Source: Deltaproteobacteria bacterium
GTDB lineage: Bacteria; Desulfobacterota; Desulfobulbia; Desulfobulbales; Desulfurivibrionaceae
DNA: 64,000 nt
Reading direction: 5' to 3'
NCBI GenBank assembly: GCA_021847425.1
Contig: JAJZRF010000003.1
Location: 1 to 64,000, forward strand
Each line of letters starts with the position of its first letter. Positions within the stretch are counted from its first letter, which is position 1. Below the pieces are notes generated by a model, which saw only the letters and a program-made list of their open reading frames with translations, was not told the DNA's origin and did no database searches. Position numbers and translations under genes: made by a program. Shown piece after piece: positions 19,141 to 37,915 of this stretch.

Positions 19141-19258
19141 AAACGATCACAGGGTGGCGCAGATGCACGAAAGAGGCCCGTCCGCCATACACCAGGTATG
19201 CGGGCAGGCCGATGACCGCAGCGCAGCGGCGAAGCAGATGGCCGCTCTGTGATCGCTT
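19141..19258. repeat. Palindromic element family 1, copy C
   Basis: Arms AAACGATCACAGGGTGGC / GCCGCTCTGTGATCGCTT; conserved core GCAGATGCACGAAAGAGGCC...GGCAGGCCGATGAC...GCGAAGCAGATG. Confidence 0.85.
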
Positions 19259-20021
19259 AGAACTGCCGACGCAGCCATGCCAGCCAGCCGGACATGCCCT
19301 CGCCGGTTCGGGCGGAGATTTCAAAAAATTCCAGCCGGTGGTTCACCCGCAGTCCATATTCCCGGCAGCGGGCCACATCAAAATCGACATGGGGAAGAAG
19401 ATCGGTCTTGTTGATCAGACAAAGACTGGCCGCATCGAACATGGCCGGATACTTGAGGGGCTTGTCCTCCCCTTCGGTGACGCTGATGATCACCACCTTG
19501 GCCGCCTCGCCCAGATCAAACATGGCCGGGCAGACCAGATTGCCGACATTTTCAATAAAAAGCAGGGAATTTCCCGCCGGATTCAGCTGATGCAAGGCCC
19601 GATGCACCATATCCGCGTCAAGATGGCAACCGGCGCCGGTGTTCACCTGGACCACGTCCACCCCGGTGGCATCGATCCGTTCGGCATCGAGCATGGTCTG
19701 CTGGTCCCCTTCGATGACTGCCATGGGAATCTCCTGGTGCAGCTCCCTGATGGTCCGCTCCAGGATGGTGGTTTTCCCCGAGCCGGGAGAGCTGACCAGA
19801 TTGAGGGCCACAATCCGCCTTTCCCTGAAAAAATCCCGATTATGCGCGGCAATCCCGTCGTTTTTCCCGAGCACCGCTTCCCGCACCTCCACAACGCGGC
19901 CCTGGGCTTGATGCGAATGGTGGTGCCCTGCCACGCCATGGCCGGACATACCCTCCTGACGACCAGGCCTCGTGATGGTTACGCTGTTCTCCGGCTGACT
20001 GCAGCCGCAGGAATCACACAT
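19257..20021 (-). CDS. hypB: Hydrogenase nickel incorporation GTPase HypB
   Basis: MCDSCGCSQPEN N-terminal Cys motif, His-rich GHHHSH, P-loop SSPGSGKTTILERT. Confidence 0.97.
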   Translation of the reverse strand: MCDSCGCSQPENSVTITRPGRQEGMSGHGVAGHHHSHQAQGRVVEVREAVLGKNDGIAAHNRDFFRERRIVALNLVSSPGSGKTTILERTIRELHQEIPMAVIEGDQQTMLDAERIDATGVDVVQVNTGAGCHLDADMVHRALHQLNPAGNSLLFIENVGNLVCPAMFDLGEAAKVVIISVTEGEDKPLKYPAMFDAASLCLINKTDLLPHVDFDVARCREYGLRVNHRLEFFEISARTGEGMSGWLAWLRRQF

Positions 20022-25786: not shown

Positions 25787-25906
25787 GTAACTGCCCAGCA
25801 GCACTGCATCTGCCTTGTCATCGGCCTGCTCGTGTGCAACAGCACACTTCGCAGACCTCTTCCGCGCATCTGCGGCAGCAGCGAAGCGGCGCTGCTGAAC
25901 AGTTAC
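25787..25906. repeat. Palindromic element family 1, copy D
   Basis: Starts GTAACTGCCCAGCAGC and ends GCTGCTGAACAGTTAC; reverse complement contains GCAGATGCGCGGAAGAGGTCTGC...GCAGGCCGATGACA. Confidence 0.88.
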
Positions 25907-25969
25907 GTTTCGTAGTTTACGGAACCTTTCCGGCCCTGAGCTAGAATTTACCTTTCCAATAATTATACA

Positions 25970-34131: not shown

Positions 34132-34304
34132 GTAAGTATTCAGCAGCGCCGCTTGCGCTGCTGCCGCAGATCCGCGAAAGAGGCTGGTTCGCAGGTAAGC
34201 GACAGGGAGGAAGACTCCGATACACCAGGTATGCGAACCGGCCGATGACAGCTAAGCGAGCGCAGCGAGACTGCGAAGGAGATGCGGTGCTGCTGAATAC
34301 TTAC
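34132..34304. repeat. Palindromic element family 1, copy B (long form)
   Basis: Perfect 16-bp terminal inverted repeat GTAAGTATTCAGCAGC / GCTGCTGAATACTTAC; core GCAGATCCGCGAAAGAGGC...GGCCGATGACAGC. Confidence 0.9.
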
Positions 34305-36151
34305 CCGCGATAAAACCATTTCTTGATGTCGTGGGAGGTAAAACTCTTGGCCACCGGGCGGCCATGGGGGCAATGGGAAAAAACCTCGGCCCGCTGCATC
34401 TCGTCCAACAGAGCTTCGGCCTCCTTTGGGCTCAAGCGTTGCCCGGCCCTGATGGCAGCCTTGCAGGCCATATCGGAGAGCACCTCCTCGGCGCGAATCC
34501 CGCCTTTTCCGGAGCCTGCCTCACCAAAACGGGCAAAGATCCCGGCCAGCACCTCCTCAACCGGAGAGCGGCCAAGCACCGCGGGCACGGCTTTCACCAC
34601 CTGGCTGGACCCGCCGAAATCCTCGATCTCAACCCCGAGGGCACTGATCTCCCCGGCGTACTGCCGGAGAATCTGGATTTCCTCCAGGGTGCACTCAATG
34701 ACCTTTGGGAACAGCAGCGTCTGACGGACGATTTTTTTGCCGGCAAACTGCCTTTTCAGCACCTCGAACAGCAACCGCTCATGGGCGGCATGCTGATCAA
34801 CGGCAAGCAAGCCGTTTTCCGTGGCGCAGAGCAGATAGGTATCCAGCAGCTGCCCGAGATAGCGCAAGCCGGAGGACGGAGCAACAGCCCCCTCTTCCGG
34901 CATCGCCGGGGTTCGGGGCTGCTTTGCCGGAAGACACGGCTCCGCCTCCAGTCCGGGTTCGTTTTCCCGGGATGCGGGACTCCGCTCCCCGGCAGCGCCG
35001 GCTTGCGGAGAAGACAACGCAGCAGCAACAGCGGCGGTCTTAAAGAGCGGCAGCGACTCCTGGACCGCAGGCGCAGGAGTCGCATACCCCGGCGTATAGG
35101 CCTTGGCCGGACCGACAGGAGGAGTTCTGAATATCTCCTGTTTCAAGGTTTGCTGATAATCCGCCATGGCGGCCTGAACCGCGACGACCACGGCCTGATG
35201 CACCACGGCCGGCTTGTGAAACCTGACTTCCTGCTTGGTGGGGTGAACGTTCACATCAACGCTTTCCTGCGGCATGGCCAGAAAAATCACCCCGCCCGCC
35301 CCCCGCCCTTTCATGAGATAGTTCTGCAACCCTTCGCCCACCGCATGGGTGATCAGGCGATCATGGATCGCCCGGCCATTGACAAAGATCCTGAGCCGGG
35401 CGGCGGCAGGGACGTCCGGCGGCAGAAGATAACCGGAAACCCCTGGTTCATCGGCGTTCCCGTCCTGTCCCTGCCGACCCACCGCAACCAAAGACCCGTC
35501 TCCTTTGCCAAGAATCCGTTCCGCCCTGCTCCGGGGGGTGTCGAGCCCCGATGGCAGCCGCAACACTTCGCGGCCATCCACTGTAAAACTTACCCCAAGT
35601 TCCGGCCGGGCCAGGGCATAATTCTTCACCACCTCTTCGATGTGGGCCAATTCCGTGCGGGTGGATTTCAAAAATTTTTTCCGGGCCGGGACATTGCCGA
35701 AGAGATCCGTCACCTCAAAAGAGGTGCCGGGGCTGCTCCCCATCTCATGCACCTTGAGGAGCCGCCCGAAACGGAGGTCAACCTGGGTTCCCAGGGCTTG
35801 GCCCGCAGGACGCGAAGTGATCCGCAACCGGGATACCGAGGCAATGCTGGGCACGGCCTCGCCCCGGAAACCCAGGGTTCGGATGGCGCCGAGCTCGGCA
35901 AGGCTTGTGATCTTGCTGGTGGCATGGCGCTCCAGACAGAGAAGGACATCATCCTGGTCCATGCCGGCCCCATCGTCAATCACCCGGATCAGGCGCGTGC
36001 CGTCGCCTTCCACCTGGATGGCGACCTGCCCGGCGCGAGCGTCGATGGCATTTTCCAGCAGCTCCTTGACCACCGAGGCGGGTCGCTCGACAACCTCGCC
36101 GGCCGCGATCTGGTTGGCCAGATTTTCCGGAAGAATCCTGATCCTGGACAA
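34301..36151 (-). CDS. mutL: DNA mismatch repair protein MutL
   Basis: MSRIRILPENLANQIAAGEVVERPASVVKELLENAIDA; GFRGEAVPSIASVSRL; C-terminal CPHGRPVAKSFT. Confidence 0.97.
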   Translation of the reverse strand: MSRIRILPENLANQIAAGEVVERPASVVKELLENAIDARAGQVAIQVEGDGTRLIRVIDDGAGMDQDDVLLCLERHATSKITSLAELGAIRTLGFRGEAVPSIASVSRLRITSRPAGQALGTQVDLRFGRLLKVHEMGSSPGTSFEVTDLFGNVPARKKFLKSTRTELAHIEEVVKNYALARPELGVSFTVDGREVLRLPSGLDTPRSRAERILGKGDGSLVAVGRQGQDGNADEPGVSGYLLPPDVPAAARLRIFVNGRAIHDRLITHAVGEGLQNYLMKGRGAGGVIFLAMPQESVDVNVHPTKQEVRFHKPAVVHQAVVVAVQAAMADYQQTLKQEIFRTPPVGPAKAYTPGYATPAPAVQESLPLFKTAAVAAALSSPQAGAAGERSPASRENEPGLEAEPCLPAKQPRTPAMPEEGAVAPSSGLRYLGQLLDTYLLCATENGLLAVDQHAAHERLLFEVLKRQFAGKKIVRQTLLFPKVIECTLEEIQILRQYAGEISALGVEIEDFGGSSQVVKAVPAVLGRSPVEEVLAGIFARFGEAGSGKGGIRAEEVLSDMACKAAIRAGQRLSPKEAEALLDEMQRAEVFSHCPHGRPVAKSFTSHDIKKWFYRG

Positions 36152-37525: not shown

Positions 37526-37628
37526 TCTTCCATCCTCTTATTCCACGCGTCCCCATGCAGGAAACTTATTTGATCTGACAACGATGGCCCGCGGGAATAT
37601 CCCCAGACCCTCTCATTTTAAAATTTTC

Positions 37629-37748
37629 GTAACTGTTCAGCAGCACCCCATCTGCTTCGCCGCTGCGCTGCTGTCATCGGCCTGCTTATGTGCAATAGCA
37701 CACTTCCCAGGCCTCTTTCGCGCATCTGGGGTGCTGCTGAACAGTTAC
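37629..37748. repeat. Palindromic element family 1, copy A
   Basis: Perfect 22-bp terminal inverted repeat GTAACTGTTCAGCAGCACCCCA / TGGGGTGCTGCTGAACAGTTAC; internal hairpin TGTGC-AATA-GCACA; conserved core. Confidence 0.92.
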
Positions 37749-37915
37749 ATTCCGTGGTTTTCGTTCAATTCCGGCATCAAGCTGGATAGTTACAAATTTT
37801 CGCGATAATACCATGAACCGGGCCATGATTCCAGAGCTCTTAATATCTTGACAGGAAAAGCCATCCTCATATAGTGTGCGAGGTGTTTTTCAGCAGGAGA
37901 TCCGAGGCAGCGACC

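What the first reader, a model, noticed from the sequence alone, without database searches (positions are those of the whole stretch)
37629..37748. Four-copy family of palindromic intergenic elements with covarying terminal arms (copy A, type example)
Seen directly: copies at 19141-19258, 25787-25906, 34132-34304 and 37629-37748. In one orientation all share a core GCAGATGCGCGAAAGAGGCC - variable hairpin - (CA)GGCCGATGACA. Three of the four (A, B, C) also retain, in varying form, a GCGCAGCG-rich stretch and a terminal GGAGATG/GCAGATG motif. Copy A has a perfect 22-bp terminal inverted repeat (GTAACTGTTCAGCAGCACCCCA). Arms differ between copies (GTAAGTATTCAGCAGC in B, CGATCACAGGGTGGC in C) but remain complementary within a copy. 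The internal hairpin also swaps (TGTGC/GCACA in A and D versus CATAC/GTATG in B and C). Such compensatory change suggests selection for a folded form, in RNA or single-stranded DNA, and not only for primary sequence. It resembles ERIC/MITE-type elements in size and placement but matches none that I recognise.
Basis: partly seen in the sequence, partly recalled or inferred. Interest (0 to 1): 0.85.

Follow-up and report, generated by a model that had tools for sequence, protein, structure and literature searches.

The report
Mobile DNA carrying a conserved hairpin
The four palindromes are copies of a small jumping DNA element, about 150 bases long and without genes, that is spread by the dozen through a whole order of sulfur bacteria and whose long hairpin keeps its shape, mainly on one strand, even where its letters change, which points to a job for the folded strand that nobody seems to have described.

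Summary
The four copies belong to a non-autonomous transposable element family. The host genome has at least 40 copies, and 159 of 258 genomes of the order (Desulfobulbales) match a covariance model. A full copy is: outer end L (GTAACTATCCAGC), a spacer of about 45 bp, arm M, a structured core, arm R, flanked by exact 8-bp target duplications (52 copies). The '22-bp terminal repeat' is M/R; only R is a true end. Copy A runs 37629-37793 with AAATTTTC on both sides. Related genomes have the empty site with one AAATTTTC. GTAA ends plus an 8-bp duplication match IS66-family elements of the same order, but no mobilising partner was found. The hairpin covaries strongly, also at orthologous sites (37 compensated double changes against 10.8 double changes expected). 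On one strand G-U outnumbers A-C (426:33). That favours selection for a single-stranded fold over template switching alone. Whether the fold acts as RNA or ssDNA, and for what, is not shown. Rfam and the papers searched gave no match. Verdict: new variant of a known kind (MITE).

The parts
37629..37793 (-). Copy A, full-length element (165 bp): R end at 37629, core strand is minus, L end at 37793
   Evidence: exact 8-bp duplication on both sides, empty sites in related genomes
37621..37628 (.). 8-bp target duplication AAATTTTC, left copy
   Evidence: single copy in empty sites of G020 and G024
37794..37801 (.). 8-bp target duplication AAATTTTC, right copy
37781..37793 (-). Outer end L, GTAACTATCCAGC
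37727..37748 (-). Arm M, GTAACTGTTCAGCAGCACCCCA (inner copy of the end, pairs with R)
37651..37726 (-). Structured core: GATGC...AAGAGGCC - TGTGC hairpin - GGCCGATGACA - extra GCAGCGCAGCGGCG module - AAGCAGATG
37629..37650 (-). Arm R, true right terminus (reads TGGGGTGCTGCTGAACAGTTAC on the minus strand)
25787..25951 (-). Second copy; hairpin 25787-25906, eroded L end GTAAATTCTAGC up to about 25951; M arm carries an extra CGCCGCTTCGCTGC stem-loop
   Evidence: orthologue L077 at the same site
19143..19259 (+). Third copy, GATCAC-type arms; its R end supplies the TAA stop (19257-19259, minus strand) of the neighbouring ORF 19257-20021
34132..34304 (+). Fourth copy, CATAC/GTATG inner hairpin and inserted modules; its R end supplies the TAA stop (34301-34303, minus strand) of ORF 34301-36151

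Best explanation
This is a family of miniature, gene-less DNA transposons with IS66-type ends (GTAA..., 8-bp target duplication), moved in trans by a transposase that recognises the outer end L and the right end R. Shown: the borders, target duplications, empty sites, copy numbers, order-wide spread, and a hairpin (arms M and R plus a structured core) that is conserved by compensatory change, also after insertion. Inferred: the transposase is of the IS66 family; the core strand works as a single-stranded fold. I judge a short RNA made from the element more likely than a folded single DNA strand. The fold would act as a protein-binding or RNase-resistant hairpin that either helps the element (expression, transposition) or lessens its harm to the host, so that both new copies and old fixed copies keep it.
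For: Exact 8-bp duplications around L...R: 24 perfect and 10 with one mismatch among 111 parsed copies, none perfect around M...R; 52 distinct perfect cases in the larger set. Empty site of copy A with a single AAATTTTC in G020 and G024. Near-identical recent copies with perfect duplications in G012. IS66 elements of the same order: nine with GTA(A) ends and exact 8-bp duplications; one in the same family has an end GTAAGCGCTCAGC, 12 of 13 letters the same as the GTAAGCGTTCAGC ends of some copies. L covaries with R between copies (1.27 against 2.30 mismatches shuffled, sd 0.14). Fold: 94.4% of cells paired against 82.4% shuffled and 21-46% slid; 226 double-change cells against 60.5. Copies without target duplication still pair at 94.5%. 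28 orthologous loci: 37 compensated double changes against 10.8 double changes expected if the two sides changed independently, and 5 uncompensated; WC to GU 45 against WC to AC 13, p=3e-5. The GU:AC excess is present whether or not the adjoining gene runs into R (6.5 and 4.2), so it belongs to the element and not to read-through mRNA.
Against: No IS66 transposase is in the own genome or in any of the 17 genomes of the genus, including G012 with its recent burst; no autonomous relative with these ends was found. Similarity of the ends to IS66 is limited to the first 7-13 bases. No promoter for the core strand was found at copy A. Some arm changes are coordinated indels (L155, L083), which template switching explains more easily. 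Some 'orthologous' pairs could be independent insertions at a hot spot: G015 has an element in the opposite orientation at the target of copy A.
Confidence: 0.6

Rival explanations
1. Ordinary MITE whose arms stay complementary only because replication template switching between the arms (quasipalindrome correction) keeps copying one arm onto the other; the fold has no function.
For: Known to create and maintain hairpins (PMC8794818, PMC7202029, abstracts only). Coordinated multi-base and indel changes in both arms occur (L155, L083/L166, L185/L078).
Against: Correction gives identical arms and should not favour G-U over A-C, yet G-U prevails 426:33 overall and 45:13 among single changes at orthologous loci. 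Two tandem wobbles and the GA/GA internal motif are conserved throughout the aligned set. The core's unpaired letters are among the most conserved.
Confidence: 0.2
2. The fold works as single-stranded DNA (lagging strand or transposition intermediate), for example as a transposase or host-factor binding hairpin, and not as RNA.
For: M and R are both copies of the transposon end, and L covaries with R. L-M spacing is 43-51 bp across the phylum. The core strand is more often opposite to flanking genes that run in the same direction (52 against 27), so read-through mRNA is unlikely to be the selected molecule. G-T is also better than A-C in DNA.
Against: Exact 8-bp duplications indicate ordinary double-stranded DDE-type insertion. 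Old copies that have lost L, and presumably mobility, still keep the fold in place.
Confidence: 0.25
3. REP/REPIN-like element moved by the host's Y1 (RAYT-type) transposase.
For: Y1_Tnp genes are in all 15 genomes examined, one of them with a DnaA-C-like tail. Many copies, hairpins, intergenic.
Against: 8-bp duplications are not expected from Y1 transposases. Not one element lies in 98 kb around 30 Y1 genes. No GTAG/CGTC tag.
Confidence: 0.04
4. The structured core is a separate mobile hairpin that inserts into the loop of older palindromes, and the arms are its target.
For: Coreless copies exist (L050, L216, L218, L223, L255). The same kind of core sits between different arm types, including ends without GTAA (L384, L386, L395). 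Small hairpin modules are clearly inserted inside some copies (L199, L220, L236).
Against: Several coreless copies keep the 8-bp duplication and look like internal deletions of a hairpin. M, core and R are inherited together throughout the order. No duplication or junction marks around the core.
Confidence: 0.06

Closest known systems
Prokaryotic MITEs, type II (sharing only terminal repeats with an IS; PMC10969869)
   Same: Shorter than 500 bp, terminal inverted repeats of about 13 bp, direct repeats around young copies, intergenic, stable stem-loop, no gene
   Different: The long hairpin is not formed by the two termini but by R and an inner third copy M. The fold is conserved by covariation across an order and in weaker form the phylum, with a bias for one strand. 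Several end types share one core.
IS66 family insertion sequences
   Same: Ends start with GTAA, 8-bp target duplication; verified here on nine IS66 elements of the same order
   Different: No tnpA/B/C genes, and no similarity beyond the first 7-13 bases of the ends
ERIC / Correia (NEMIS) elements
   Same: About 130-200 bp mobile palindromes near genes that fold as RNA (PMC2267715, PMC10969869)
   Different: Other sequence and phylum; 8-bp duplication here, whereas ERIC and Correia elements duplicate TA (own knowledge)
REP / REPIN elements
   Same: Many dispersed palindromes in a genome that also has RAYT-type genes
   Different: Has 8-bp duplications and a multi-part fold, no GTAG tag, not near Y1 genes

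Membership tests
MITE (non-autonomous DNA transposon) | Short, gene-less, terminal inverted repeats | tested here: met
   151-166 bp typical, GTAACTATCCAGC ends on both sides
MITE (non-autonomous DNA transposon) | Target site duplication and empty sites | tested here: met
   52 perfect 8-bp duplications; empty site with one AAATTTTC
MITE (non-autonomous DNA transposon) | Related autonomous element that supplies the transposase | tested here: inconclusive
   Ends and duplication length agree with IS66 of the order, but no partner with the same ends in genus or in active genome G012
IS66-derived or IS66-mobilised | Ends GTAA..., 8-bp duplication | tested here: met
IS66-derived or IS66-mobilised | IS66 transposase present in genomes with recent copies | tested here: not met
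   PF03050 absent from 17 genus genomes including G012, G011, G014; fragmented genomes may miss multicopy IS, so the element is described as IS66-like in its ends and not filed as an IS66 member
REP/RAYT | Linkage to a Y1 transposase gene | tested here: not met
   0 model hits in 98 kb around 30 Y1 genes
Structured RNA family in Rfam | Match to a curated covariance model | tested here: not met
   (only sub-threshold hits, mostly microRNA models)
Functional RNA | Covariation above shuffled and slid controls | tested here: met
   and in place at orthologous loci; R-scape not available
Functional RNA | Transcription of the core strand | not testable with these tools
   no RNA-seq; no promoter-like site seen for the core strand at copy A

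The most novel reading that the evidence does not exclude
A phylum-wide class of transposable elements in bacteria that carries one conserved structured RNA (or ssDNA) module: the module outlives changes of end type and transposase and stays under selection after insertion, so that dozens of dispersed copies per genome serve as a genome-wide set of binding hairpins, comparable in logic to mobile ncRNAs.
Probability: 0.3. Interest if true: 0.85.

Novelty: new variant of a known kind. Interest (0 to 1): 0.62.

Why it matters
It is a large, apparently undescribed repeat family that shapes gene ends throughout the Desulfobulbales. It gives a rare natural data set (many orthologous insertions with compensated changes) for asking whether hairpins of mobile elements persist through selection or through template switching, and a concrete candidate for a mobile non-coding RNA in bacteria.

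Tried and rejected
Integron attC and IS200/IS605 ends: dropped because of the 8-bp duplications. IS66 partner in own genome and genus: absent. DDE_Tnp_1 genes of eight genus genomes: no fitting ends; the one scanned against Pfam (L269) and its near-identical relative in L273 look like IS1182-type. Search for autonomous copies among L/R ends in the most active genome: none. RAYT link: none. Plasmids, phages, viral contigs: no related element. Rfam: none. Literature: no paper with the end or core sequences in a related sense, and none found on such a family. Kink-turn reading of GGCC-GAU-GA / GA-GGCC: not kept, because the diverged type lacks it. The crude ORF-based count of copies 'inside ORFs' (68) was not used, since spurious ORFs make it unreliable. 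One subset test (CAGCAG-type shuffling) had an indexing error and is not used.

Full report
Observation. BLAST of copy A against the host genome (2.70 Mb draft, 81% complete) gives about 40 distinct places. An exact core pattern in public genomes hits at least 114 stretches; all listed records are Desulfobulbales or unnamed deltaproteobacterial/proteobacterial drafts, and the viral collection has none.

Borders and mobility. In many copies the palindrome is followed on one side by a further 45 bp or so that ends in GTAACTATCCAGC, and 8-bp direct repeats flank this longer unit, not the palindrome. Of 111 parsed copies 24 have a perfect and 10 a one-mismatch duplication around L...R, and none has a perfect one around M...R. 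A wider set has 52 perfect cases. Copy A is therefore 37629-37793 with AAATTTTC on both sides. Genomes G020 and G024 have both flanks joined with one AAATTTTC: an empty site. G012 of the same genus has more than 70 L ends, many in near-identical copies with perfect duplications, a recent burst.

Which transposase. Real IS66 elements of the same order have GTA(A) ends and exact 8-bp duplications (nine cases). One in the same family has an end GTAAGCGCTCAGC, 12 of 13 letters equal to one end variant of the element. Several end types occur (GTAACTATCCAGC, GTAAGCGATCACAGGG, GTAATCGTTCACC and others), and L follows R (1.27 against 2.30 mismatches when shuffled), as if each type tracks its own transposase. 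But PF03050 is absent from all 17 genomes of the genus, and a search through the ends in G012 found no autonomous copy. Assignment to IS66 is therefore by the ends and duplication length only.

Fold. Over 62 non-redundant copies 94.4% of cells pair, against 82.4% after shuffling (0 of 500 as high) and 21-46% when slid; 27 of 32 pairs show changes on both sides. On the core strand, arm pairs are 2256 Watson-Crick, 426 G-U, 33 A-C, 85 other; about 300 of the G-U cells sit at three positions where the wobble is the family's commonest pair, and without those positions the excess is smaller but clear (123:30 in copies without duplication). Copies without target duplication, taken as older, still pair at 94.5%. 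At 28 independent orthologous loci (flanks about 87% identical) there are 37 compensated double changes where 10.8 double changes in all would be expected if the sides changed independently, only 5 uncompensated, and 45 WC-to-GU against 13 WC-to-AC steps (p=3e-5). One site shows C-G, G-C and T-A at the same pair in L144, L007 and L199. Template switching between arms can create such pairs (PMC8794818) and probably explains the coordinated indels, but it does not predict the wobble bias. The bias is present also where the neighbouring gene's mRNA would carry the other strand, so the selected strand belongs to the element.

Spread and variants. A covariance model hits 159 of 258 genomes and 54 of 69 genera of the order, and 40 of 395 genomes of a sample of the phylum. 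Diverged copies outside the genus keep L, M, core and R, a similar L-M spacing and the 8-bp duplication (L382, L387, L393, L396), with a different inner hairpin (CGTACTCCCTGTAC) and a shared GATGCGAGG / AACAAAGCAGAT loop. A third set (L384, L386, L395) has the same core between arms without GTAA and without a duplication that I could find. Rfam has no such family, and no paper searched describes one; subscription papers, ISfinder and Dfam were not available.

Placement. In about a third of copies (53-60 of 166) the TAA inside the terminal GTAA of R closes a long open frame, against 9-14 of 130 at M. Two window copies do so (19257-19259 and 34301-34303, on the minus strand).

Mechanism. Movement by a trans-acting DDE-type transposase at L and R: shown as to product, inferred as to enzyme. 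Hairpin: conservation shown. Action as RNA or ssDNA, and its benefit (to element or host), are inferred. I hold RNA somewhat more likely than ssDNA, and both together more likely than template switching alone.

Noticed in passing
L231, L226, L230, L236, L246 (genome G012): A second, REP-like palindrome of about 55 bp (GCACCCAGAGGGTATAAGTTTCGTTTGAGCAGACAAGCTGCTCAACTCAGCTAT) occurs in tandem and inside copies of the element, as if it prefers hairpins.
   Followed up: partly
window 19257-19259 and 34301-34303; one search set: The TAA of the element's terminal GTAA serves as stop codon of the neighbouring gene in about a third of copies.
   Followed up: yes
L300 (G015) compared with window 37621-37801: G015 carries an element in the opposite orientation at exactly the same AAATTTTC target: independent use of one site.
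   Followed up: partly
L384, L386, L395, L390, L391, L392, L397: The same core sits between arms without GTAA ends and next to a small CCCGAAGGG-type hairpin, without a visible target duplication: possibly a different element type sharing the core.
   Followed up: partly
L255 (G012:C64:10955 region), L050, L216, L218, L223: Coreless copies, some with the target duplication kept; in L255 the whole hairpin is gone and GTTAC remains, suggesting precise loss of the palindrome.
   Followed up: no
L070:457-1431 (G000:C18:6774-7097 region): Y1 transposase with a DnaA-C-like tail (RAYT type); Y1 genes are in all 15 genomes looked at; their targets are unknown.
   Followed up: partly
one search set: Where both neighbouring genes run the same way, the core strand is opposite to them 52 times and the same 27 times; unexplained.
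   Followed up: partly
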